Below, piece after piece: positions 3,250 to 63,980 of a stretch of 64,000 nucleotides of DNA (positions are counted from its first letter, which is position 1; the number at the start of each line of letters is the position of its first letter). Source of the stretch: Pseudofrankia sp. DC12 (GTDB taxonomy: Bacteria; Actinomycetota; Actinomycetes; Frankiales; Frankiaceae); assembly GCF_000966285.1 (NCBI RefSeq), contig NZ_KQ031391.1, forward strand, positions 5,208,430 through 5,272,429, in the 5' to 3' direction. The translations under genes and the position numbers were made by a program. Below the pieces are notes generated by a model. The model made no database searches and was not told the DNA's origin. It worked only from the letters and a program-made list of their open reading frames with translations.

Positions 3250-4521
3250 TTACCACTCGGTTGACAGCCTCTTCACGCCGTTGATGAAGCTGCTGGCCAG
3301 CCATTCCGGTTCGCCGGAGGCGTGGATGTCAGGGAGCTGGGTGAGCAGCTCGCGCCAGATGACGGAGATCTCGCGGCGGGCCAGGTGGGCGCCGAGGCAG
3401 AAGTGCGGTCCCGCGCCGCCGAAGCCCAGGTGCGGGTTCGGGTCGCGGCGGACGTCGAAACGGTCGGGGCCGGTGAAGACGGCCTCGTCGCGGTTGGCGG
3501 ACGAGTAGAACAGCAGCACCTTGTCGCCGGGGTTCAGCCGCTGGCCGGCGAGCTCGACCTCGCTGGTGACCGTGCGGCGCATCCAGCGCACCGGGCTCGC
3601 CCAGCGCACGATCTCCTCGACGGCTGTCCGGCTCACCCCCGCAAGGTCGTTGCGCCAGATGTCCCGCTGCTCCGGGAACGCCGTCAGCGCCAGCAGCGCG
3701 TGGCTGATCGCGGTCCGGGTCGTCTCGTTGCCGGCGACCAGCAGCAGGATGAAGAACGAGGCGATCTCGGCGTTGTCGAGCTGCTCGCCGTCCACCTCGG
3801 CCAGGGCGAGCGCGGTGGTCAGGTCGTCGGTAGGGCCGGCCCGGCGCTTCGTGGCCATCTCGTGCAGCAGTTCGGCGAGCTCCGCGCCGGCACCCAGCAG
3901 CGCGGCCACGATGTCCGCGCCCTCGGGAACGAAGTCGGGGTCGCCCGAGCCGAGGATGACGTTCGTGCAGTGGAAGACGTCGCCGTAGCGCTCGGGCGGC
4001 AGGCCCATCATCCGGCAGATGACCTCCAACGGCAGCCGCGCCGCGACCCGCGACACGAAGTCGCCTGGCCCCTCGTCGCGCAGCTCGGTCACGATCCCGC
4101 GGGCGAGCGCGGCGATGTCGTCCTCGGTCTGGGCGATGAACCGCGGCGTGAACGCCCGGGAGACGATCCGGCGCAGCCGGTGGTGCCGGGGCGGGTCCAT
4201 GTTGATCATCCCGCCGAAGAACTCGAGGAACTCCGGGGGCAGGTCCGGGACCGAGGTCGCGCCGCGGGCGGAGGAGAAGACCCCCGGCTCCGAGCTGATC
4301 CGGACGATGTCCGCGTGCCGGGTGACCGCGTAGTAGCCGGGCCCCCGCGTGATCATCTCGCTGGCCGTCGCCGGCTCCGGGTAGAAGGGCAGCGGCCGAT
4401 TCGCGCGCAGCAGGGCGAACGCCGCGTCGATCTCGGCCCGCGGCCGGACCCAGAAGGACAGGTCGGACAGGTCGATGTCGTCGACGGCCTGGCCTGGCCC
4501 GGCACCGGCTACGACCGGCAT
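3250..4521 (-). CDS. Cytochrome P450
   Basis: Haem monooxygenase, 423 residues, soluble bacterial class. Key motifs are present: I-helix AGNETTRT (residues 263-270) with the acid/threonine pair, the ExxR of K-helix EEIVR (303-306), PERF-like GPDRFDV, and the haem loop FGGAGPHFCLG with Cys375. Its general sequence, including MINMDPPRHHRLRRIVSRAFTP, resembles the CYP125/CYP142/CYP124 group that hydroxylates sterol or branched alkyl chain ends, but substrate cannot be read from sequence. No ferredoxin gene adjoins it. Upstream on the same strand lies a broken acyl-CoA synthetase, which suggests the pair was once an operon. Confidence 0.95.
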   Translation of the reverse strand: MPVVAGAGPGQAVDDIDLSDLSFWVRPRAEIDAAFALLRANRPLPFYPEPATASEMITRGPGYYAVTRHADIVRISSEPGVFSSARGATSVPDLPPEFLEFFGGMINMDPPRHHRLRRIVSRAFTPRFIAQTEDDIAALARGIVTELRDEGPGDFVSRVAARLPLEVICRMMGLPPERYGDVFHCTNVILGSGDPDFVPEGADIVAALLGAGAELAELLHEMATKRRAGPTDDLTTALALAEVDGEQLDNAEIASFFILLLVAGNETTRTAISHALLALTAFPEQRDIWRNDLAGVSRTAVEEIVRWASPVRWMRRTVTSEVELAGQRLNPGDKVLLFYSSANRDEAVFTGPDRFDVRRDPNPHLGFGGAGPHFCLGAHLARREISVIWRELLTQLPDIHASGEPEWLASSFINGVKRLSTEW

Positions 4522-4584
4522 GGTGGCCTCACGTCCTCCCTGGCGGGGCTGTCGCTGGGAGAGTGGTGGCGGCCGGCCGAAGAG

Positions 4585-4982
4585 TCAAGGTCCGCGGAGG
4601 GCCGGTTGGCTGCTCAGGCCCCGGAGCTCGCGCTTGAGCACCTTGCCCGACGGGTTGCGGGGAGCGCCTCAATGAACGTCACGGCCTTCGGCGCCTTGAA
4701 CTTCGCGAGGCTGCCGCGGCAGTGCTCGACCAGTTCGTCAGCGGTGACCGAGGTTCCCGGCCGCAGCGCGACGGACGCCACCGGCACCTCGCCCCACTTC
4801 TCGTCAGGGCGACCGATCACCGCGGCCTCGAGCACCGCCGCGTGCTCGTAGCGGACACGCTCGGCCTCGGAGCCGGCGATGTTCTCGCCGCCGGAGAGGA
4901 TCACGTCCTTGAGCCGGTCGACGATGAAGACGTAGCCGTCTGGTCCGACGGCCCGCGCACCTTCCTCGGCGTCATGTGCCAC
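4585..4982 (-). pseudogene. Acyl-CoA synthetase (FadD-like), C-terminal remnant with frameshift
   Basis: The reverse strand encodes the hinge and C-terminal lid of an AMP-forming acyl-CoA ligase: DGYVFIVDRLKDVILSGGENI, then HAAVLEAAVIGRPDEKWGEVPVA and LAKFKAPKAVTF. The whole N-terminal adenylation domain is missing upstream of about 4980. Near 4660 a one-base loss shifts the frame: one frame reads EALPATRRARCSS while the next reads RNPSGKVLKRELRGLS, which contains the expected catalytic lysine, ending at a TGA at 4585. Two lesions make this a dead gene. It lies directly upstream of the P450. Confidence 0.8.
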
Positions 4983-5069
4983 CGCCGTCCCCCGCTGGTC
5001 GTCTGGCTGACCGGTCGGTCCAACAGAGACTAGCCCAGCCCCACAGCCGAGAGGAACGGTAGCCAGCCG

Positions 5070-52758: not shown

Positions 52759-54378
52759 ATGGCAGAGCGACCGGTCGAGCATCTGGACGTACTGATCATC
52801 GGGGCTGGCCTGTCCGGCATCGGGATCGCCGTCCACCTCAAGGCCCACCACCCGCGCCGGGCCGTCGCCCTGCTGGAGGCCCGCGGCGCGCTGGGCGGAA
52901 CCTGGGACCTGTTCCGCTACCCGGGCGTCCGCTCGGACTCGGACATGAGCAGCCTCGGCTACGGGTTCCGGCCGTGGACCGAACCGCGCCTGATCGCCGA
53001 GGGCTCGGCCATCCTGCGCTACCTGGCCGACACCGCCCGCGAGCACGGCATCGACGAGCGGATCCGTTACGGGCACCGGGTCGCCGCGGCCAGCTGGTCG
53101 AGCGCGCAGGCCCGCTGGACCGTCGACGTGGAGCTCGCTCCCGACGCGGCAGGTCCGGCGGGCGTCGTCGCGGAGGCCGCCGCGTCGTCGGTGCCGTCCG
53201 GCGAGCGGCCGCGCCGGATCCAGCTCACCTGCGACGTGCTCGTCGCGGCGACGGGCTACTACCACTACGACCGCGGGTACGAGCCGGACTTCCCCGGCCG
53301 TGCCGCGTTCACCGGGCGCGTGGTGCACCCGCAGCACTGGCCCGACGACCTGGACCACAGCGGCGCCCGGGTCGTGGTGATCGGCAGCGGCGCGACCGCG
53401 ATGACGCTGGTGCCCGCGCTCGCCGAGCGAGCCGCCCAGGTCACGATGCTGCAACGGTCGCCGACCTACGTGGTCTCGGTGCCGGCGGTCGACCCGGCGA
53501 CGACCCGGTTGCGTCGCGTCCTGCCTGACCGCTGGGCCGGCTGGCTGGTCCGTTGGCGCAACATCGTGCGCCAGCAGCTGCTGTTCCGGCTGAGCCGCCG
53601 GCGCCCCGAGCTGGTCCGCCGGGCGCTGCTGGCTCGAGTCACCCGGGCGCTGCCGCCGGGCTACGACGTGGCCAGGCACTTCACGCCCCGCTACGACCCG
53701 TGGGACCAGCGGCTGTGCCTCGTGCCGGACGGCGACCTGTTCGCCGCCATCCGGGGCGGACGCGTCGACGTGGTCACCGACGAGATCGACACCTTCGTCG
53801 AGCGGGGCATCCGGCTGCGCTCCGGCCGGGAGCTGGCCGCCGATCTCGTCGTCACCGCGACCGGGCTGCGGCTGAAGATGTTCGACGGCATCCCGCTCAC
53901 CGTCGACGGCGTCCTCGTCCGTGTCCCGGACCGGCGGATGTACAAGGGCCTGATGCTGGAGGGCGTCCCGAACTTCGTCTTCGCCTTCGGCTACACGAAC
54001 GCGTCCTGGACCCTGAAGGTTGACCTCGTCGGCGAGCACCTCGCCCGCCTGCTGCGCCACCTGGACCGCCACGGGCTGGGCGCCTTCGTCCCGGAGCCGG
54101 CCGACCCGCCCGGCGAGCCGGCCGAGCCGGGGGAGGGGACCTTCTTCGACTTCAGCTCTGGCTACGTGCTGCGGTCGGCGGGGGAACTGCCCAGGCAGGG
54201 CACCCGCGGGCCGTGGCGGACCCGGATGAGCTACCTGACCGACGTGCGGGCGCTGCGGTTCGGCCGGGTCGGCGGCCCGGAGCTGCGCCTCGAACCGTTG
54301 CCGGCCCAGCGCCGGTCAGCCGGCGTCGCGGAAGAGGCACTCCTGGGCGATCGTGGCGACGAGCCGGCCGTCGCCTGA
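52759..54378 (+). CDS. Flavin-containing monooxygenase/Baeyer-Villiger-type
   Basis: A 539-residue FAD/NADPH monooxygenase of the EtaA/MymA kind. FAD loop: VLIIGAGLSGIGIAVHL. The BVMO-like fingerprint FTGRVVHPQHWPDD and the second nucleotide loop VVVIGSGATAMTLVPALAE are present. It may oxidise ketones to esters or act as an alkyl-side-chain hydroxylase. The end overlaps the opposing thioesterase by 63 bases. ATG 52759 begins MAERPVEHLDV after a GGGG-rich site. Confidence 0.92.
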   Translation: MAERPVEHLDVLIIGAGLSGIGIAVHLKAHHPRRAVALLEARGALGGTWDLFRYPGVRSDSDMSSLGYGFRPWTEPRLIAEGSAILRYLADTAREHGIDERIRYGHRVAAASWSSAQARWTVDVELAPDAAGPAGVVAEAAASSVPSGERPRRIQLTCDVLVAATGYYHYDRGYEPDFPGRAAFTGRVVHPQHWPDDLDHSGARVVVIGSGATAMTLVPALAERAAQVTMLQRSPTYVVSVPAVDPATTRLRRVLPDRWAGWLVRWRNIVRQQLLFRLSRRRPELVRRALLARVTRALPPGYDVARHFTPRYDPWDQRLCLVPDGDLFAAIRGGRVDVVTDEIDTFVERGIRLRSGRELAADLVVTATGLRLKMFDGIPLTVDGVLVRVPDRRMYKGLMLEGVPNFVFAFGYTNASWTLKVDLVGEHLARLLRHLDRHGLGAFVPEPADPPGEPAEPGEGTFFDFSSGYVLRSAGELPRQGTRGPWRTRMSYLTDVRALRFGRVGGPELRLEPLPAQRRSAGVAEEALLGDRGDEPAVA

Positions 54379-55191
54379 GTGGATGGTGCCGTTGTAGAGG
54401 CCACGGCCGCCGGCGGCCGACAGCGGCGTGACGTTCATCAGGACCCAGTCGTCCAACCGGGCCGGGCGGTGGAACCAGACGGCGTGGTCGAGGCTCGCGC
54501 CTGAGCGGGAGCGCCCGTCGTGCCAGGCGGCGAGCCCGCCGGACACGTCGGACAGGTACGTCAGCACGCTCGCGTGCAGCAGCGGGTCCTCGGTGAGCGG
54601 CACGGTCGCGCGGGCCCAGAACCGGGTCTCCCAGTCGGCGTCCGGGTACGGCTGAGCCGGGCGCCGGCATTCCACGTCGAACAGCCGGGGGAGCTGCATC
54701 CGCGGCAGCGTCGCCGGCGCCCCCGCCGCGGGCAGCGGGCCGGCCTGCCGGTCGAGGCCGGTCTGTGGCCGGTGAAACGAGCAGGACATGTTGAAGATCA
54801 CCTGTCCGCTCTGGATCGCGACCACCCGGCGCGCGGAGAACGACCGGCCGTCCCGGTCCCGCTCCACCCGGAAGATCGCCGGCCGGGAGGCGTTGCCGCG
54901 GCTGAGGTAGTAGCCGTGCATCGAGTGCGGCAGCCGGTCGGGCGGGACCGTCCGGCCGGCCGCCAGCAGCGCCTGCGCCGCGACCTGGCCGCCGAACAGG
55001 GAGTACGGCTCGTCGAAGACGGCGGTGGTGCGGTAGAGGTCCTGGTCGAGCTCCTCCAGGTCCAGCAGGTCCAGCAGGGTGACGCCCGCCTGGCCCGGCG
55101 GCACGGTCCCGTCGTCGAACGACCTGCCCGTGCCGGCTGCCGTTGCCAGGCTGGCCGCCTCGGTCCCGTTCGGCCCGTCCGCCATGCTCAT
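54316..55191 (-). CDS. Acyl-CoA thioesterase II (TesB-like)
   Basis: A double hot-dog thioesterase of 291 residues hydrolysing acyl-CoA. Motifs are EPYSLFGGQVAAQALLAAGR and LPHSMHGYYLSRGNA in the first domain, and LDHAVWFHRPARLDDWVLMN in the second, containing the catalytic Asp/Gln/Thr region. ATG 55191 starts MSMADGPNG. It converges with the flavin monooxygenase and their coding 3' ends overlap by 63 bases. Confidence 0.92.
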   Translation of the reverse strand: MSMADGPNGTEAASLATAAGTGRSFDDGTVPPGQAGVTLLDLLDLEELDQDLYRTTAVFDEPYSLFGGQVAAQALLAAGRTVPPDRLPHSMHGYYLSRGNASRPAIFRVERDRDGRSFSARRVVAIQSGQVIFNMSCSFHRPQTGLDRQAGPLPAAGAPATLPRMQLPRLFDVECRRPAQPYPDADWETRFWARATVPLTEDPLLHASVLTYLSDVSGGLAAWHDGRSRSGASLDHAVWFHRPARLDDWVLMNVTPLSAAGGRGLYNGTIHSGDGRLVATIAQECLFRDAG

Positions 55192-55425
55192 CGCTCGCCC
55201 ACCGCTCTCGCCGCCAGCCCCAGGTTCACCGTCGCCGGGCCGTGCGCCCGCCGGCGGAGGCGCGCCGCATTCGCGCGCGGGACAGGACCGGACGTGCCAG
55301 GCGACGTTCGTCGAACGTTCTCCGTGACCGTATCGGTCGACCAAGGCCGGACCCGGTCTCGCGTGACCGCCGCTACCCCGTCGGGCGCGGGGTGAGTTCC
55401 GGGCCGGGCATCGCCGAAGCGCTGG

Positions 55426-57011: not shown

Positions 57012-59654
57012 ATGGTCCGCAAGTCCGCGCCCGAACAGGTCGAGACCGTCGTCGTTGGGTCGGGCTTCGGTGGATCGGTCACCGCGTTCCGGCTCGCCGA
57101 GGCCGGGCGAGACGTGCTGGTGCTTGAACGTGGCCGGGCGTACCCGCCGGGCTCCTTTCCCCGTACCCCCGGCGACCTGGCGGGGGCCTTCTGGGACCCG
57201 GACGCCGGCCGGCACGGGCTGTTCGACGTCTGGTCCCTCGGCGGGACCGACGCCGTGGTGTCCGCCGGCCTCGGCGGCGGCTCGCTGATCTTCGCGAACG
57301 CGCTGGAGCGGGCCGATGAGAGCTGGTTCACCCGGGTGGGCCCGCCGGCCGGCGGAGCGTCTCGCGGCGGCGGTGGCGCCGGCTCGCGGGCGAGCGGCGC
57401 GGGCCGTGGCTCCGGGCGCCGCCGGACGGCCGGCGCCCAGCCCTGGCTGATCGGCCGCGCAGATCTGGAGCCGCACTACGACGCCGTCGAGAAGATGCTC
57501 GGCGCCACGCCGTTCCCGGCCGGCCGGGCGGGCTTCGAGACCGCCGGGCGCGCCGGTGCCGTCCGCGCCGCGGCGCAGCGCGCCGGGATGGACTGGCGGG
57601 CGCCCGCGCTCGCCGTCAGCTTCGGCGCGCGGGGGGTCACGGCCCCAGGGCTCGCGCTGCCGGAAGCCGTGTACGGCAACGTGCACGGCCGGGCGCGCAC
57701 CACCTGCCAGCTCGCCGGCGACTGCGTGCTCGGCTGCAACCACGGCGCCAAGAACAGCCTCGACCACACCTACCTCTCGGCGGCCGCCTACCACGGCGCC
57801 GAGATCAGAACCCGCTGTGAGGTGCGCGGGATCGCGCCCGACGGCGAGGGCGGCTGGGTCGTCAGCTACGTGGAGCACCACCGTGCGGTCGACGGCAGGC
57901 CGCTCGACACGGTCGCGCTGCCGATGCGGGCCGTGCGCTGCTCCCGGGTGGTGCTGGCGGCCGGGGCGCTCGGCTCGACCTATCTGCTCCTGCGCGCCCG
58001 ACCGAGCCTGCCGGCCGTCAGCCCGCTGCTCGGTCAGGAGTTCACCGGCGACGGTGACGTTCTCGGGCTGGTCGTCGGCGCCCGGCGGGACGGCGAGCCA
58101 GCCTGGCCGGCCGGCGGTGCGCCGACCATCACCGGCACGGTCCAGCTCCCGAGGACGCCCCAGGGCGGCGACCCCGGCTTCGTCCTGCATGACGCGGGCG
58201 TCCCGGCCTTCCTTTCCTGGCTGCTCGCCGCTCGTGAGCTGGCGGTGGCCGGCTCCGGTGGCCTCGGCGTGCCCGGTCTGCCGGCCGGCCTGGGACTGCC
58301 CGGCGTCGGGCGCTCGCTGCGGCTGGCGCGGGACGCGCGGGAGTGGGTGGCCGCGCGGCTGTTCGGCGGCGCGGGTGGCGACCTGCGGGGACGGCTCGCC
58401 CGGCTGGCCGACGCGGGCGCCGGCCCCGAGCCGCTGCTCGCGCTGCTCGCCGTCGGCAGGGCTGGGACGGACGGGGTGCTGCGCCTCGACGGTGACCGGC
58501 TCGCTGTCGAGCGCGCCGGGGCCCGGCACGAGGAGTACACCGATCGGGTCCACGCGATGATGGCCGAGCTTGCCGCCGAGCTCGCCGGCCGCTTCGAGCC
58601 GGGCGCGGGGGCGGCGAACCGGGGGACGACCGCGCACCCGCTCGGCGGCGCGCCGATGGGAGACAACGCCCAGGACGGCGTCGTCGACGAGTTCGGCCAG
58701 GCGTTCGGGCACCCCGGCCTCTACGTCGTCGACGGCGCGGTGTTCCCCGGCCCCGTCGGGGCGGCACCGGCACTCACGATCGCGGCGTTCGCCGACCGGG
58801 CCGCCCAGCGGATGGTCGCCGACGGCCGCCGCCGTGCGCGGACGGTGCCCCGGCCGCGGACCTCGCCGGGCACCCGTGCCCTGGTAGCGCCGTCCGGGGC
58901 CGCCGGCGCGAGGACGGCCCGGTCGCTGACGTCCGCCGGCGCCGCGGGCGCGCCCACCTCCGCCGGTGGCACGGCGTCCAGCGCGGCGAACACGAGCCGC
59001 CTGTCGTCCGCCACTGGAGCCGGCAGCGGGACGAAGGGAACCACGGCGATGAAGTCCACGACGGCCCCCACCGGGAGCCGGGCGGCGGGCACGAGGACCG
59101 CCACGACCCAGGCGCGTAAGACCACCGGGACCGGTACGCCGAAGGCGGCGGCCGACCGGAGCGCGCCCAGGGCCGCAGCCGAGGCACCGGCGTCGAAGGC
59201 CTCCGGCCGAGCAGACGCGGCGCGGGCCGCTGGCCCTGCGAGCACGGCGAAGGCCGCTGGCCCTGCGAGCACGGCGAAGGCCGCTGGCCCTGCGACCACG
59301 ACGAAGGCAGCGGGCAGCGCGATCACGCCGAAGGTGGCTGGCCGTGCCAGCGCGGCGAAGGCCGGCGAGCGGGTGAGCGCGCCGGAGGCCGCGCGCCGCG
59401 TGAGTACGGCGAAGCCCGGCGGCGCGCGCGCCAAGGCGTCGGCGGGTGGCGGCCGGGCCGTGACCGGCCGCCCTGCGGCCGTCCGCGCGGCCGGCAGCGG
59501 TCCGGTTGACCAGAGCAGGCCGAGGTCCGGTCGCGCCGCAGGGGTTGACGTGCCTCTGCAGGCCGCTGGACCGGCCCGCTCGGCGGTGCAGGGTGCCGGG
59601 CCGAGCACGCCAGGTGGCGGCGCCGGTGCGCGCCGGACGGCGGTGACCCGATGA
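57012..59654 (+). CDS. GMC/cholesterol-oxidase-like oxidoreductase with histone H1-like tail
   Basis: An 880-residue protein. Residues 1-about 607 are a ChoD-like GMC flavoenzyme: FAD loop VVVGSGFGGSVTAFRLAEAG, GLGGGSLIFANALE, the CVLGCNHGAKNSLDHTYL segment, and catalytic-site GTTAHPLGGAPMGDNAQD, then YVVDGAVFPGPVGAAPALT. From about 58835 the remaining about 270 residues are low-complexity Ala/Lys/Pro/Thr/Arg (for example SKASGRADAARAAGPASTAK) with a 9-residue repeat, like eukaryotic or bacterial H1 tails. Normal family members end at about 570-610 residues. The start MVRKSAPEQ is at 57012. It overlaps the next gene by ATGA. Confidence 0.9.
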   Translation: MVRKSAPEQVETVVVGSGFGGSVTAFRLAEAGRDVLVLERGRAYPPGSFPRTPGDLAGAFWDPDAGRHGLFDVWSLGGTDAVVSAGLGGGSLIFANALERADESWFTRVGPPAGGASRGGGGAGSRASGAGRGSGRRRTAGAQPWLIGRADLEPHYDAVEKMLGATPFPAGRAGFETAGRAGAVRAAAQRAGMDWRAPALAVSFGARGVTAPGLALPEAVYGNVHGRARTTCQLAGDCVLGCNHGAKNSLDHTYLSAAAYHGAEIRTRCEVRGIAPDGEGGWVVSYVEHHRAVDGRPLDTVALPMRAVRCSRVVLAAGALGSTYLLLRARPSLPAVSPLLGQEFTGDGDVLGLVVGARRDGEPAWPAGGAPTITGTVQLPRTPQGGDPGFVLHDAGVPAFLSWLLAARELAVAGSGGLGVPGLPAGLGLPGVGRSLRLARDAREWVAARLFGGAGGDLRGRLARLADAGAGPEPLLALLAVGRAGTDGVLRLDGDRLAVERAGARHEEYTDRVHAMMAELAAELAGRFEPGAGAANRGTTAHPLGGAPMGDNAQDGVVDEFGQAFGHPGLYVVDGAVFPGPVGAAPALTIAAFADRAAQRMVADGRRRARTVPRPRTSPGTRALVAPSGAAGARTARSLTSAGAAGAPTSAGGTASSAANTSRLSSATGAGSGTKGTTAMKSTTAPTGSRAAGTRTATTQARKTTGTGTPKAAADRSAPRAAAEAPASKASGRADAARAAGPASTAKAAGPASTAKAAGPATTTKAAGSAITPKVAGRASAAKAGERVSAPEAARRVSTAKPGGARAKASAGGGRAVTGRPAAVRAAGSGPVDQSRPRSGRAAGVDVPLQAAGPARSAVQGAGPSTPGGGAGARRTAVTR
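59225..59305. repeat. Three 27-bp tandem repeats in H1-like tail
   Basis: A 27-base unit beginning GGCCGCTGGCCCTGCGAGCA at 59225, 59252 and 59279 (third copy with two changes) encodes the 9-residue repeat KAAGPASTA. Confidence 0.8.
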
Positions 59655-61144
59655 CGGCCACCCCGCGGATCGCCGTGACGCTGATTCACGGCGTGGAGAC
59701 GGCCGACGCCGGCTACGCCGACCGGGCCGTCGAACTGCTGCGCCGGGCGTTCGCGAAGCATTCCGGCGCCGACCCGGACGAGGCGCTCGTCGTGCGGCCG
59801 ACGTTCTGGGCGCCGGTGCTCCAGCCGGCCGAGGACGAGCTGTTCCAGCGCTGCTTCGGCCCGGGCCAGGCGCGCTACGTGCGCTGGCTGAAGCGCCAGA
59901 CGAAACGGGTCGACCACGGGTCGCGGCTGGCGATGCTCGCGCTGTCGTCGTCCGCGCTGTTGCCGCGAGTCCCGTTCGCCGGCCCGCTGCCGTGGCCGAC
60001 GCTGCGCTGGGTCACCACCGAGTTCGCCGGGGACGCGATCGCCTACCAGATCGCCGGCGAGCGGGACCACACCGTCTACGACGCGATCCACGCCCGTGTC
60101 GCGGTGGCACTGCGGGAGCTCGCCGTGGCGGCCGGACGGGAGGCGCCGCTGTGCGTGCTCGGGCACAGCCTCGGCTCGGTGATCGCGAGCAACTACTTCT
60201 ACGACCTCCAGGTCGAGCACGGTCACTACCCGCGCGGCGGGCCGCTCGCCGACGGCGGAATCCCGACCGGTCCTGGCCGGGTGCCGCCGCAGCTGCGCGG
60301 CGCCCCCGGCGAACAGCCGACCGCGCGCCGGCTGGTACCGGCGGCGACGCGGCTGGCGATCGGCCCGGCGCCGTCCGCGCTGGAACGAGGCGAGACCCTC
60401 ACCGACCTGATCACCCTCGGCAGCCCGCTGGGGCTCTACTCGCTGCGTTCGCGCGGCTTCCACCGACCGCTGCTCGTACCGGCGCCGACCGCGGCGGGCG
60501 GCCTCGCGGGGCCCGGGCGCGCGGCCACCGGCGACGCCGAGGCCCAGCTGACGAGCCCGCGACGGCGTGATGCGGCCGGCGGGACGCGGGCCGGTGGCTG
60601 GATCAACGTCTACTCGCCTTACGACCTGGTGAGCCAGCCGCTGCGGCCGTTGTCGGAGGAGTACCGGCTCGCGGTCCGCGAGGATCTCCGGATGACGGTC
60701 GGCCCCTGGTGGGCGGCCCGCGGTCCGCTGTCGCACGTCTGGTACTGGAACGACCCGAGGGTCGCGGATCTGGCCGGCCGCGCGCTGGCCCGCACCTGGC
60801 GCGCACACGCCGGCATCCCCGACGGCGCGCCAGCCCAACGCACCCCCCGGCGTCCTGCCGCGCGCCCGGCTGGTATCGGCGGGACGGCTGCCGATCGCGC
60901 GAGGAGCCGCGCGGTGACCCCGGCCGCGACCGGGATCGGCCCCGCGAAGCCTGGGACGACCAAGCCCGGGATCTCGAAGGCGCCGGTGTCGAAGGCCGCG
61001 GCGACGAAGCCCGGGACCTCGAAGGCGGTGACCTCGCAGGCGACGGCCGCCAAGCCGGCGGCGATGAAGTCCGGCCCGGTGAAGGCGACGGCCGCCAGGG
61101 CGGCGGACGCCGGGAAGGTGGCAGTGCCAGACCGGCGGTGGTGA
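59651..61144 (+). CDS. Alpha/beta hydrolase with H1-like tail
   Basis: A 497-residue protein whose start overlaps the preceding stop (ATGA). The hydrolase core has VTLIHGVETADAGYADRAVE, the nucleophile elbow LCVLGHSLGSVIASNY, an Asp candidate in INVYSPYDLVSQPL and His in LSHVWYWND. From about residue 395 it becomes an Ala/Lys/Pro/Thr-rich tail (TKPGISKAPVSKAAATKPGT). The tail continues in another frame after the stop at 61144 (see next entry). Substrate unknown; lipase or peptidase activity is possible. Coupled expression with the GMC enzyme and similar tails suggest a joint function. Confidence 0.88.
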   Translation: MTATPRIAVTLIHGVETADAGYADRAVELLRRAFAKHSGADPDEALVVRPTFWAPVLQPAEDELFQRCFGPGQARYVRWLKRQTKRVDHGSRLAMLALSSSALLPRVPFAGPLPWPTLRWVTTEFAGDAIAYQIAGERDHTVYDAIHARVAVALRELAVAAGREAPLCVLGHSLGSVIASNYFYDLQVEHGHYPRGGPLADGGIPTGPGRVPPQLRGAPGEQPTARRLVPAATRLAIGPAPSALERGETLTDLITLGSPLGLYSLRSRGFHRPLLVPAPTAAGGLAGPGRAATGDAEAQLTSPRRRDAAGGTRAGGWINVYSPYDLVSQPLRPLSEEYRLAVREDLRMTVGPWWAARGPLSHVWYWNDPRVADLAGRALARTWRAHAGIPDGAPAQRTPRRPAARPAGIGGTAADRARSRAVTPAATGIGPAKPGTTKPGISKAPVSKAAATKPGTSKAVTSQATAAKPAAMKSGPVKATAARAADAGKVAVPDRRW

Positions 61145-61566
61145 AGGCCGGTCCTGCCAAGGCGGCGGGCACCAGGGCTGGGACGGCGAAGGCTGGGAGG
61201 CCGGTGACCGGGACGGCGAAAGCCACGACCGTGCAGCCCGGGACCGGCGGCGCCGCCGCTGGAGCCCGACGGGACGGCCCAGGCCCGCGGCCGGCCGGCC
61301 CCCGGGCGGCGAGGCCGGCGACCGTACGGGCCACGAGCCCGCGGGCGACCGCGCGTGCCACGGTCGGCACGGCAGCCCGGGTTACCGCCGCGAGGCCGGC
61401 GCCCGCCAGGGCGACAGCGGCCGGGGTTCCGAAGGCGGCTGCTTCCGCCGGCACCGGCTCGACGCGTGCCGTGGCGAAGGCGGAGACACCGCGCCGGACC
61501 GCCACACGCGGGAGCGGCGAGGACCGGCCGGCGAAACCACGCAGGACCATCACCGACGCCAGCTGA
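61115..61566 (+). pseudogene. Out-of-frame continuation of the H1-like tail
   Basis: From about 61115 the next frame reads VVKAGPAKAAGTRAGTAKAG, then RPVTGTAKATTVQPGT and ends KPRRTITDAS at 61566. Its composition matches the tail of the preceding protein, while upstream of 61115 this frame loses that composition. One indel near 61085-61135 would join them into a protein of about 640 residues. It may be a true frameshift or a sequence error in GC-rich repeats. Confidence 0.6.
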
Positions 61567-61664: not shown

Positions 61665-62777
61665 CTACTCCTCGCCAGCGGTCTTGTCGGTGACGCCGGC
61701 ACCGTCGAACGTGGCGACCTCGGCGAGGACGCGGGCCGCGGCCTGGATGACCGGCACGGCGAGCACGCCGCCGGACCCCTCACCCAGCCGCATGCCCAGG
61801 TCGAGTAGCGGCACCAGGTCGAGCGCGGCCAGCGCCGCGGACGCTCCGGGCTCGACCGACCGATGTCCGGCGAACATCGCCGCGCGGGCCGCCGGGGCGA
61901 GCCGCGCGGCCACCAGCGCGGACGAGCAGGCGATCACCCCGTCGAGCACGACCGGCACCCGGGCGGCGGCAGCGGCGAGCACGTACCCGACTGTCGCCGC
62001 GTGTTCCACCCCGCCGAGGGCCGCCAGCACTCCCAGTGGGTCGTCCGCGGTGACTCCGTCGGCCGCGGCGCGGCCGACCGCCCGGCTCACGACCTCGACC
62101 TTGTGCGCGAGGGCCGCGTCGTCGATGCCGGTGCCGCGGCCGGTCACCGCGGCCGGGTCCGCGCCCAGCAGGGCCGCGACAAGCGCGGCCGACGGTGTGG
62201 TGTTGGCGATGCCCATGTCGCCGGTCACCAGCAGGTCGTGCCCGTCGGCCAGCAGGCCTTCGGCCACCGCGGCACCGGCGGCGATCGCCCGGAGCGCCTC
62301 GGCCCGGCTCATCGCCGGCTCGACCGTGATGTCGGCGGTACCGGCGCGCACGCTGCGGCGGTCCAGCCCGGGCAGCTCGGCGACGACGGCCGCGGCCTCC
62401 GGCGACATGCCGACGTCGACCACGCGCACGGTCACGCCGACCTGGCGGGCGAGCGCGTTGACGACCGCTCCGCCGGCGAGGAAGTTCGCCACCATCTGCC
62501 CGGTGACCTCGCGCGGCCACGGGGACACGCCCTGGGCATGCACCCCGTGGTCGCCGACGAACACGGCGACGGCGGGGGCAGCCGGGACGGGCGCGGGCAC
62601 TGCCGCGGCCAGCGCGGCGAGCCGGACCGAGACGTCCTCCAGCTGGCCAAGCGATCCACGCGGCTTGGTGAGCCTGTCCTGGTGTTCGCGCGCGGCCTGC
62701 GCGACGGTCGGGTCGGTCGCCTCGATCCGCGCGGTCAACGCGTCGAGCACGGCCGTGTCCGGCGGTTCGGGACTCAT
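61665..62777 (-). CDS. cobT: Nicotinate-nucleotide-dimethylbenzimidazole phosphoribosyltransferase
   Basis: Makes alpha-ribazole phosphate for the lower ligand of cobalamin. The 370-residue protein shows the family pattern: DRLTKPRGSLGQLEDVSVRL, VAVFVGDHGVHAQGVSPWP, LLVTGDMGIANTTPSAALV and DLGMRLGEGSGGVLAV with the catalytic Glu. The ATG at 62777 gives the normal length. It lies downstream of cobS on the same strand and the two form an operon. No cobalamin riboswitch was seen in the 148-base gap. Confidence 0.96.
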   Translation of the reverse strand: MSPEPPDTAVLDALTARIEATDPTVAQAAREHQDRLTKPRGSLGQLEDVSVRLAALAAAVPAPVPAAPAVAVFVGDHGVHAQGVSPWPREVTGQMVANFLAGGAVVNALARQVGVTVRVVDVGMSPEAAAVVAELPGLDRRSVRAGTADITVEPAMSRAEALRAIAAGAAVAEGLLADGHDLLVTGDMGIANTTPSAALVAALLGADPAAVTGRGTGIDDAALAHKVEVVSRAVGRAAADGVTADDPLGVLAALGGVEHAATVGYVLAAAAARVPVVLDGVIACSSALVAARLAPAARAAMFAGHRSVEPGASAALAALDLVPLLDLGMRLGEGSGGVLAVPVIQAAARVLAEVATFDGAGVTDKTAGEE

Positions 62778-62924
62778 CTGGCGCCTCCCTCGGTTCGGCC
62801 CGGACGCTACCGAAGGTCCACGGCCCGCGGCGGCCGAACGTGACCGACCAGCCGCGCTCCCCGAGCGCGGAGCGGTCCCGCCTCGCCGGTCGCGACGGGT
62901 CCGGCCGCCGCGGGCCACCGCGGG

Positions 62925-63980
62925 CTAGATGCCGCCCCAGGCGATGATCGCCCCGACCGCCAGCAGGGTGACGGTGGTGGTGATCTCGATGACGGCGCCG
63001 AAGACGTCGCCGGTGATGCCGTCGAGCCGGCGGACGGCGTGCCAGGTCACCAGCCGGCCGGCGGCGAGTCCGACGAGAACGGCGAACGGCAGCCACAACG
63101 CCCGCGCGAGGCTTGTCTGGGTCAAGGCCAGGAGCAGCCACCCGAGCACCAGCGTGGCTCCCGCGGCGGTCGCCCGGACGGCCGCCGGGGCGGTCCCGGC
63201 GACGAGGCCGCCGAAGCCGCCGGGACGCGCAGGCGGGACGGCGGGACGCGCCGCGTCGAGCGCGGCCAGCCGGCCGGCGACCGCGGCGACCACCAGGACC
63301 ACCAGCCCCTGCGCCCGGCTCGCCGACGCCAGCACCGTCAGCACGCCGCCCAGCTGCAGCAGCAGGACGGCGATCAGCGCGGTCACCCCGAACGGCCCGA
63401 TGTCCGAGCGCCGCATGATCGCCAGCGCCTCCTCGGCGGGCCGGCGGCTACCGAGCCCGTCGGCGACGTCGGCCAGCCCGTCGAGGTGCAGCCCACGGGT
63501 GAGCAGCGCCATCACGCCGACCCAGGCCGCCGCTCCGAGGAAGCCGGCGCCGGAGCCGTAGCCACGCCAGAAGATCAGCGAGACGGCCCAGCCGGCCACC
63601 GCGAGCAGCCCGCCCAGCACAGGCAGCCAGCGCAGCGCCCAGCCGGCGAGACCGGCGTCGACGGCGTCCCGGCCGGCCCGGCGGGCCGGCACGGGAATCA
63701 CGGTGAACATGCCCACGGCGAGCGGGAGCGCGCGCAGCGCCGCCGGCTCGCCTCCCGGAGCGCGGCGCCGGCTCGCCGCCGGCGTCTCGGCCCGGCGGCT
63801 GCGCAGCGCCGTCACGCCGCCGGCGGCCCGGTCGCGCACCCAGCCGACGCCGTCGCCGACCCGACGGCCGAGAGCCGCCGTCGCCTGGGTCGGCGGGCGC
63901 TGCCCCGAGGCTGGGCGGGTCGAGGGGGCGTCGTCGGGATAGCCGTCGACGCGTGGCCGGGCCCGGTCACGGCCGGTCAT
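62925..63980 (-). CDS. cobS: Adenosylcobinamide-GDP ribazoletransferase
   Basis: Integral membrane enzyme joining GDP-cobinamide to alpha-ribazole. The 351-residue protein has hydrophobic helices with the CobS motifs FTVIPVPARRAG and LLTRGLHLDGLADVADGLGS, then MRRSDIGPFGVTALI. It carries an extra basic, disordered N-terminus of about 80 residues before the family start, similar to other high-GC actinobacteria; a shorter start may be used. Its ATG overlaps the stop of a further minus-strand gene at the window edge. Confidence 0.94.
   Translation of the reverse strand: MTGRDRARPRVDGYPDDAPSTRPASGQRPPTQATAALGRRVGDGVGWVRDRAAGGVTALRSRRAETPAASRRRAPGGEPAALRALPLAVGMFTVIPVPARRAGRDAVDAGLAGWALRWLPVLGGLLAVAGWAVSLIFWRGYGSGAGFLGAAAWVGVMALLTRGLHLDGLADVADGLGSRRPAEEALAIMRRSDIGPFGVTALIAVLLLQLGGVLTVLASASRAQGLVVLVVAAVAGRLAALDAARPAVPPARPGGFGGLVAGTAPAAVRATAAGATLVLGWLLLALTQTSLARALWLPFAVLVGLAAGRLVTWHAVRRLDGITGDVFGAVIEITTTVTLLAVGAIIAWGGI

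What the first reader, a model, noticed from the sequence alone, without database searches (positions are those of the whole stretch)
57012..61566. Two coupled enzymes with matching histone H1-like tails
A ChoD-like GMC flavoenzyme (57012-59654) and an alpha/beta hydrolase (59651-61144, possibly to 61566) overlap by ATGA and both carry long Ala/Lys/Pro/Thr tails with regularly spaced Lys. Such tails are known on bacterial nucleoid proteins and a few nucleic-acid enzymes, not normally on these enzymes. They may anchor both proteins to one polyanion (DNA, polyphosphate, teichoic or nucleic acid in the envelope) so that an oxidation product passes to the hydrolase.
Basis: partly seen in the sequence, partly recalled or inferred. 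Interest (0 to 1): 0.72.

Follow-up and report, generated by a model that had tools for sequence, protein, structure and literature searches.

The report
Two enzymes with lysine-spaced repeat tails
Two neighbouring enzyme genes in a Frankia-like soil bacterium each carry a long, flexible-looking, positively charged repeat tail like those that tether storage granules to DNA in other bacteria; the tails are real and peculiar to this lineage, but what they bind is untested.

Summary
A GMC flavoenzyme (57012-59654) and an alpha/beta hydrolase (59651-61144) overlap by ATGA and both end in Ala/Lys/Thr-rich tails. Lys counts beat 500 of 500 shuffles in each of nine tails; an 800-kb sample of the genome gave only two short-frame windows of this kind. 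The window's hydrolase tail is cut by a frameshift near 61110-61135; in two relatives it is 245-254 aa and ends at the place equivalent to 61566.

The interpretation needs change. The GMC tail is on 6 of 6 readable orthologues of the genus, but only 3 of these genomes have the hydrolase. The two tails share composition, not sequence. The tailed GMC lacks the Asn kept by 14 of 14 readable untailed homologues, so an oxidation product handed to the hydrolase is doubtful. The hydrolase fold is closest to DDHD phospholipase domains, by a small margin.

Best reading: polybasic tethers working like those of AlgP, PhaF and MLDS. Near-neutral repeat growth is the main rival.

The parts
57012..58814 (+). 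GMC flavoenzyme core (residues 1-601)
   Evidence: Pfam GMC_oxred_N and GMC_oxred_C over cut-off; PDB cholesterol oxidases best by sequence; core dN/dS 0.17-0.30 (core taken as residues 1-613)
57345..57431 (+). Low-complexity insert inside the GMC core (about residues 112-140), absent from the untailed homologues aligned
   Evidence: alignment of 11 GMC proteins, 5 of them untailed
58764..58766 (+). Codon of Ala585, where untailed homologues and cholesterol oxidase have the catalytic Asn
   Evidence: alignments; position; role of the Asn recalled
58815..59651 (+). GMC C-terminal tail (residues 602-880), rich in Ala, Thr, Ser, Gly with spaced Lys
   Evidence: on 6 of 6 readable orthologues of the genus
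59194..59430 (+). 27-bp tandem repeat array in the GMC tail (Lys often every 9 residues)
   Evidence: TRF
59651..59654 (+). ATGA start/stop overlap of the two genes
   Evidence: same overlap in both relatives
59651..60829 (+). Alpha/beta hydrolase core (residues 1-393), lipase fold, nearest to DDHD domains
60167..60169 (+). Ser173 of GHSLGS, presumed nucleophile; Asp325 (60623-60625) and His362 (60734-60736) presumed rest of the triad
   Evidence: invariant in 8 of 8 homologues; roles inferred
60830..61141 (+). Hydrolase tail as encoded in the window, with 15-bp units (Lys mostly every 5 residues)
61126..61566 (+). Rest of the hydrolase tail in another forward frame, ending where the relatives' proteins end
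   Evidence: relatives' hydrolases of 638 and 630 aa
52759..54378 (+). Upstream flavin monooxygenase-like gene, also upstream of the tailed GMC in the five relatives read

Best explanation
The pair is a presumably cytosolic, lipid-acting enzyme locus of one Frankia-like genus: a GMC flavoprotein with an altered active site and, in part of the genus, a DDHD-like lipase with a presumed intact catalytic triad. Each ends in a polybasic, probably disordered tail. The tails most likely act as non-specific electrostatic tethers that hold the enzymes at an anionic surface, either the nucleoid or the phospholipid surface of membranes or neutral-lipid droplets, working like the H1-like tails of AlgP, PhaF and MLDS. 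Shown: tails frame-specific, peculiar to the lineage among genes read, composition kept while sequence turns over. Inferred: disorder, tethering, which surface, lipid substrate.
For: Lys count exceeds 500 of 500 shuffles in 9 of 9 tails and D+E is low. The two tails of one genome share no sequence above codon shuffles yet have the same kind of composition; the eight tails not cut by the frameshift have net charges of +34 to +44 although lengths run from 245 to 423 aa (one of them, G004, ends at a contig edge). The tail is on 6 of 6 readable GMC orthologues of the genus and 3 of 3 hydrolases and scarce in an 800-kb sample. The one HU-family match of the genome has no such tail. The hydrolase models match DDHD domains first: VIA Z 15.6 and 14.9, 242 residues aligned each. 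The untailed Streptomyces relative lies beside a patatin-like phospholipase gene. The genome has two WS/DGAT matches over cut-off, so neutral-lipid droplets are possible, and no PhaC_N match. Precedents, passages read: AlgP (PMC9239181), PhaF (PMC5658603), MLDS (PMC5504291).
Against: No binding or localisation data. Net charge alone does not exceed shuffles. Tail dN/dS is high, 0.50-0.59 for the GMC and 0.71-0.91 for the hydrolase, against 0.17-0.30 in the cores, with alignments uncertain in repeats. The window's own hydrolase tail is truncated by a frameshift. Units are not KPAA or PAKKA, and no doubled Lys is seen in the printed tails of the window and its two pair-holding relatives (by eye). 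The DDHD match is close to that of other lipases and cutinases.
Confidence: 0.45

Rival explanations
1. Near-neutral low-complexity growth. In a GC-rich genome, slippage and tandem duplication lengthen protein ends and loops that tolerate it. The tails have no binding role beyond solubility; composition follows from duplicated units that happen to contain AAG codons.
For: Tails are tandem repeats, with units mostly of a multiple of 3 bp; dN/dS 0.50-0.91; low-complexity inserts inside both cores; the window's hydrolase tail is broken; GMC tails of the two sublineages hardly align: the score against G001 is reached by 134, 30 and 1 of 200 codon shuffles for G004, G005 and G006.
Against: The same low-acid, Lys-spaced composition arose in two unrelated tails by different repeat units, is kept in nine of nine tails and is scarce in an 800-kb sample, which drift would not predict for two adjacent genes.
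Confidence: 0.33
2. One reading: both tails sit on one polyanion so that the GMC product is handed to the hydrolase.
For: Overlapping genes, both tailed in 3 of 3 pair-holding genomes; a GMC of this class also lies two genes upstream of this hydrolase in Streptomyces.
Against: The tailed GMC occurs without the hydrolase in G004, G005 and G006; in 5 of 6 hydrolase loci outside the genus no GMC gene was found in the DNA held, one of these (L043) starting only 224 bases before the match; the Streptomyces genes lack tails; the GMC lacks the catalytic Asn.
Confidence: 0.1
3. The tail replaces a lost accessory domain. Untailed homologues carry a domain of about 200 aa ('FDETDP' type) fused to or just behind the GMC; in the tailed group it is gone and its linker has expanded into a tail that does the same docking less specifically.
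For: Domain fused in Streptomyces and G023 and adjacent in G018, G027 and the G004 paralogue; no match in G000-G003 and G005-G007.
Against: The domain's function is unknown; it does not explain the hydrolase tail, since the Streptomyces hydrolase has neither domain nor tail.
Confidence: 0.12

Closest known systems
AlgP of Pseudomonas aeruginosa (PMC9239181, abstract and passages seen)
   Same: Long C-terminal Lys/Ala tail of tandem repeats, predicted disordered; the paper reports it as a hot spot of rearrangement and as needed for polyphosphate granule spacing
   Different: KPAA units; small helical N-terminal domain, not an enzyme
PhaF phasin of Pseudomonas (PMC5658603, passages seen)
   Same: H1-like tail on a protein that acts at a storage-granule surface
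   Different: AAKP-like units; polyhydroxyalkanoate-binding domain; no PhaC_N match in this genome
MLDS of Rhodococcus jostii (PMC5504291, passages seen)
   Same: Actinobacterial lipid-droplet protein whose Lys-rich C-terminus binds DNA
   Different: PAKKA motifs; a droplet protein, not an enzyme
Cholesterol oxidase-like GMC flavoenzymes
   Same: GMC domains over Pfam cut-offs; His542 and the C-terminal block align with cholesterol oxidase
   Different: Ala585 in place of the catalytic Asn; equivalog cut-off not reached; tail added
DDHD-domain lipases (Nir1/Nir2 structures)
   Same: First fold match of two models, 233-243 residues aligned
   Different: No Pfam DDHD match listed; 13-16% identity in the VIA alignments; bacterial and tailed

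Membership tests
GMC oxidoreductase family | GMC_oxred_N and GMC_oxred_C domains | tested here: met
   33.7 bits (cut-off 23) and 64.4 bits (cut-off 24.6)
GMC oxidoreductase family | Catalytic His in the C-terminal block | tested here: met
   His542 aligned with the HPLGG block of cholesterol oxidase; its role is recalled
GMC oxidoreductase family | Second catalytic residue (Asn or His) | tested here: not met
   Ala in G000-G002 and Gly in G004-G006; Asn in 5 of 5 untailed homologues and in 9 of 9 close homologues (own left out) with a readable motif. Relative by descent; catalysis as an ordinary GMC enzyme doubtful
Cholesterol oxidase (NF058674 equivalog) | Score over the curated cut-off | tested here: not met
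   167.1 bits against 850
DDHD-domain lipases | DDHD fold | tested here: inconclusive
   First in all four structure look-ups, but Foldseek E only 0.0047 and 0.005 with cutinases from 0.0084 in the second, VIA Z 15.6 and 14.9 against 14.4 and 13.2 for the next other folds; models of mean pLDDT 66 and 74
DDHD-domain lipases | Match to the Pfam DDHD model | tested here: inconclusive
   None listed at E up to 10 for 8 members, but HMMER filters drop weak matches
Serine alpha/beta hydrolases | Nucleophile elbow GxSxG | tested here: met
   GHSLG in the window protein; HSLG in 8 of 8, the first Gly in 3 of 8 (this genus), Ala or Ser in the other 5
Serine alpha/beta hydrolases | Conserved Asp and His for the triad | tested here: met
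   Asp325 and His362 invariant in 8 of 8; assignment to the triad inferred, no activity shown
H1-like-tailed proteins (AlgP, PhaF, MLDS) | Lys/Ala-rich, acid-poor C-terminal tail with few hydrophobics | tested here: met
   nine tails
H1-like-tailed proteins (AlgP, PhaF, MLDS) | Tandem KPAA/AAKP or PAKKA motifs | tested here: not met
   units are TAKAAGPAS-like (9 residues) and KAVTS/KPGTS-like (5 residues), by eye and by TRF. It may work like them but is not filed as one of them
H1-like-tailed proteins (AlgP, PhaF, MLDS) | Binding to DNA or another polyanion | not testable with these tools
   needs a binding assay

The most novel reading that the evidence does not exclude
A metabolic flavoenzyme has been turned, by loss of its catalytic Asn and growth of an H1-like tail, into a (near-)pseudoenzyme tether that brings a redox cofactor and, in one sublineage, a separately tailed DDHD-like lipase to the nucleoid-facing surface of lipid droplets or membrane: an enzyme-based counterpart to the granule-to-DNA tethering of PhaF, AlgP and MLDS.
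Probability: 0.12. Interest if true: 0.75.

Novelty: new variant of a known kind. Interest (0 to 1): 0.42.

Why it matters
H1-like tails in bacteria are known on granule and nucleoid proteins. Here two unrelated enzymes of one locus seem to have acquired such tails separately, with different repeat units but the same kind of composition, while one of them lost a catalytic residue. If the tails tether, this is a natural test of whether bulk charge and spacing, not sequence, is what selection keeps, and it would link lipid hydrolysis to the nucleoid or membrane surface in a soil actinobacterium.

Tried and rejected
Rejected: tails as non-coding read-through. For the GMC tail the differences between species fall in excess at third positions (34/32/52, 69/52/91, 56/44/90) and Lys and D/E are frame-specific. 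The hydrolase tail shows no codon-position signal between G001 and G002 (33/39/42) nor between the window and either; there the Lys placement is the evidence.

Rejected, as far as sampled: tails as a genome-wide habit (11.6% of the genome, thresholds set after seeing the tails). Searches with the tails themselves: the GMC tail in 3 genomes hit only its own locus and that of G001, and not even the tailed orthologue of G006. The hydrolase tail of G001 in 8 genomes hit itself, G002, the window's own locus weakly, and five other places at E 0.037-0.43, three of them with stops inside; the two without stops (both in G002) were not looked at. The first look scored at most 150 candidates per genome.

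Rejected: one tail split off or copied from the other. Local alignment of GMC and hydrolase tail DNA was reached by 32, 55 and 157 of 200 codon shuffles and by 19, 10 and 107 of 200 dinucleotide shuffles.

Rejected: the genome's HU as a model for the tails; the one match found is tailless.

Led nowhere: phylum search for the hydrolase, 1 of 396 genomes, own only, with few candidates scored per genome; sequence search of PDB with the hydrolase, none at E up to 10; a look for Fe-S-bearing dehydrogenases with the Cys stretch of the GMC (one search listed only cholesterol oxidases and one sarcosine oxidase); literature on such tails on GMC enzymes or in Frankia: two papers, one AlgP; two papers, one on phasins, neither on GMC tails; none; 314 papers, 8 listed, only MLDS pertinent; on Frankia lipid droplets, nothing pertinent among 8 listed of 2,373; on bacterial DDHD domains, nothing used.

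Rows dropped: of 30 loci, 4 had no full frame by my motif filter (L126, L135, L136, L137). Of the 26 left, the own locus L132 was positive and 25 had no Lys-tail window; two of these 25 (L130, L131) were partial frames, and L138-L150 are distant GMC proteins. The filter is crude.
Full report
SETTING. The window lies in a single-contig genome of 6,884,336 bases (G000). The size fits Frankia sp. DC12 (6.88 Mbp; PMC4541282, passages), but no tool names G000, so this is inference. G002 matches Frankia sp. AgB1.9 by a contig of the same length, 37,510 bases. G001 (8,815,781 bases) I recall as strain EuI1c; no call names it. The DC12 paper reports an Illumina assembly of 12 contigs in one scaffold with later finishing by PCR, Sanger and/or PacBio, which matters for the frameshift below.

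OBSERVATION. Both ORFs and the ATGA overlap are as described. Core and tail split near residue 601 (GMC) and 393 (hydrolase); searches used nearby cuts (613; 395 or 400). Third-position G+C is 0.861 in the GMC tail and 0.902 in the hydrolase tail, against 0.922 and 0.927 in the cores. In nine tails (six GMC, three hydrolase) none of 500 dinucleotide shuffles reached the Lys count; D+E as low was reached by 3, 0, 0, 0, 0, 0 (GMC) and 7, 0, 0 (hydrolase) of 500; net charge was reached by 86 to 499 of 500, so positive charge as such is not the signal. A six-frame scan of 40 spaced stretches (800 kb) with thresholds set after seeing the tails gave two windows in short frames; the window gave two, the genes in question.

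FRAMESHIFT. The relatives' hydrolases run to 638 aa (G001) and 630 aa (G002) in one frame. In the window the first frame stops at 61144, but the same kind of Lys-spaced text continues in another frame to 61566, where the final PRRTAT-like block and the stop align with both relatives. The stretch 61126-61563 holds 7 Lys in that frame, reached by 0 of 1000 shuffles. So the window's tail is broken between about 61110 and 61135, by a real indel in repeats or by an assembly fault; I cannot tell which.

DISTRIBUTION. The GMC core was searched in 58 genomes, own included: close orthologues (70-88% identity) in G001, G002, G004, G005 and G006, a piece at a contig edge in G007, nothing close in G003. 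The tail is present in all six genomes with sequence beyond the core, own included; in G004 it runs to the contig end. The hydrolase core is in 3 of the 58 (G000, G001, G002) and in 1 of 396 genomes drawn from the phylum, own only. A genome-contig scan gave 7 loci: AgB1.9, one Streptomyces, two myxobacteria, two Thalassobacillus and a record labelled Comamonas. Five of the six outside the genus have a readable frame and none of these has a tail; the sixth (L047) has a broken frame. Only the Streptomyces locus also held a GMC gene. There the order is GMC with a C-terminal accessory domain, a patatin-like protein with a second copy of that domain, then the hydrolase. A wider GMC search hit 40 of 396 genomes; of the 30 loci fetched, 26 could be read and only the own one had a Lys-tail window.

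ACTIVE SITES. The alignment of 11 GMC proteins shows Ala (G000-G002) or Gly (G004-G006) where five of five untailed homologues have Asn; nine of nine further close homologues with a readable motif keep Asn; the PDB alignment places this column at the Asn of cholesterol oxidase (3cnj chain; its catalytic role is recalled). The tailed six also lack the second Cys of the CxxCxxCxxxC stretch kept by the five untailed ones. The cores are under purifying selection (dN/dS 0.17-0.30), so the gene is not decaying. The hydrolase family keeps Ser173, Asp325 and His362 in 8 of 8.

FOLD. Two models of the hydrolase core (window protein, mean pLDDT 66; Streptomyces protein, mean pLDDT 74) both find the DDHD domains of Nir1/Nir2 first: Foldseek E 0.0047 and 0.005, with cutinases from 0.0084 in the second search; VIA Z 15.6 and 14.9 with 242 residues aligned at 3.5 and 4.0 A, the next other folds at 14.4 and 13.2 with 170 and 199 residues. 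I take this as 'lipase fold, probably DDHD-like', not as proven membership; Pfam DDHD was not listed.

TAIL EVOLUTION. GMC tails are 279-423 aa (G004 322 aa at the contig edge), the unbroken hydrolase tails 254 and 245 aa; net charge is +34 to +44 in these eight, +17 in the window's truncated hydrolase tail. Repeat units are mainly 27 bp in the GMC tails of G000-G002 and 15 bp in the hydrolase tails; G004-G006 show 15-, 18- and 27-bp units among others; most but not all periods are multiples of 3. GMC and hydrolase tails of one genome do not align better than codon shuffles. dN/dS is 0.50-0.59 in the GMC tail and 0.71 in the hydrolase tail (G001-G002); 0.89-0.91 with the window's truncated tail, on 97 codons. 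So sequence turns over quickly while composition is kept. A charge-and-spacing tether predicts that, but loosely constrained repeat growth predicts much of it too.

MECHANISM. Such tails are reported or proposed to hold granule proteins on the nucleoid: AlgP and polyphosphate, PhaF and polyhydroxyalkanoate, MLDS and lipid droplets in an actinobacterium; passages only were read. This genome has two WS/DGAT matches and no PhaC_N match, so of storage lipids triacylglycerol or wax droplets are the possible partner. A lipase with a polybasic tail could equally sit on acidic phospholipid. A flavin monooxygenase-like gene lies upstream in the five relatives read. I favour a lipid-surface or nucleoid tether (0.45), with neutral repeat growth as main rival (0.33), and give the substrate hand-over little weight (0.1), because half of the tailed GMC genes found have no hydrolase partner and the GMC lacks its Asn.

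VERDICT. Real, scarce in the sample, confined to this genus among the genes read; interpretation partly right; a new variant of a known kind of tail on unexpected carriers. No paper on such tails on these enzymes turned up in the searches named.

Noticed in passing
L042:2717-3472 and 4315-4989; also L053, L054:7788-8462, L055, L056: An accessory domain of about 200 aa ('FDETDP' type) without a Pfam match is fused to both a GMC enzyme and a patatin-like protein in one Streptomyces gene cluster (32% identity between the two copies) and sits fused to or behind GMC genes in other Frankiaceae.
   Followed up: partly
57345-57431, and about 60250-60330 and 60490-60590: Both enzyme cores carry extra low-complexity inserts that the untailed homologues aligned lack.
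   Followed up: partly
GMC residues 232, 238, 242 (57705-57737): A C-x5-C-x3-C spacing remains after loss of one of four Cys in a CxxCxxCxxxC stretch; it recalls an iron-sulphur ligand pattern (recalled, not shown; one search listed no such enzyme).
   Followed up: partly
L110 (G000:C1:1884680-1884946): The one HU-family match of the genome is a short tailless HU, unlike the tailed HU recalled from mycobacteria.
   Followed up: yes
54316-55344, minus strand: A frame that reads like an acyl-CoA thioesterase overlaps the end of the monooxygenase gene; a similar gene stands convergent in G006 (named by eye).
   Followed up: no
61665-63980, minus strand: Two genes that read like cobalamin genes cobT and cobS follow the locus (named by eye).
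   Followed up: no
G004:C151 (L053): One genome of the genus also holds untailed GMC paralogues with the accessory domain and, by eye, an alpha/beta hydrolase-like gene beside them.
   Followed up: no
G002:C215:6987-7319 and G002:C122:98826-99272: Two weak matches to the hydrolase tail in open frames of 515 and 770 codons (E 0.28 and 0.43): possible further tailed proteins in the genus.
   Followed up: no
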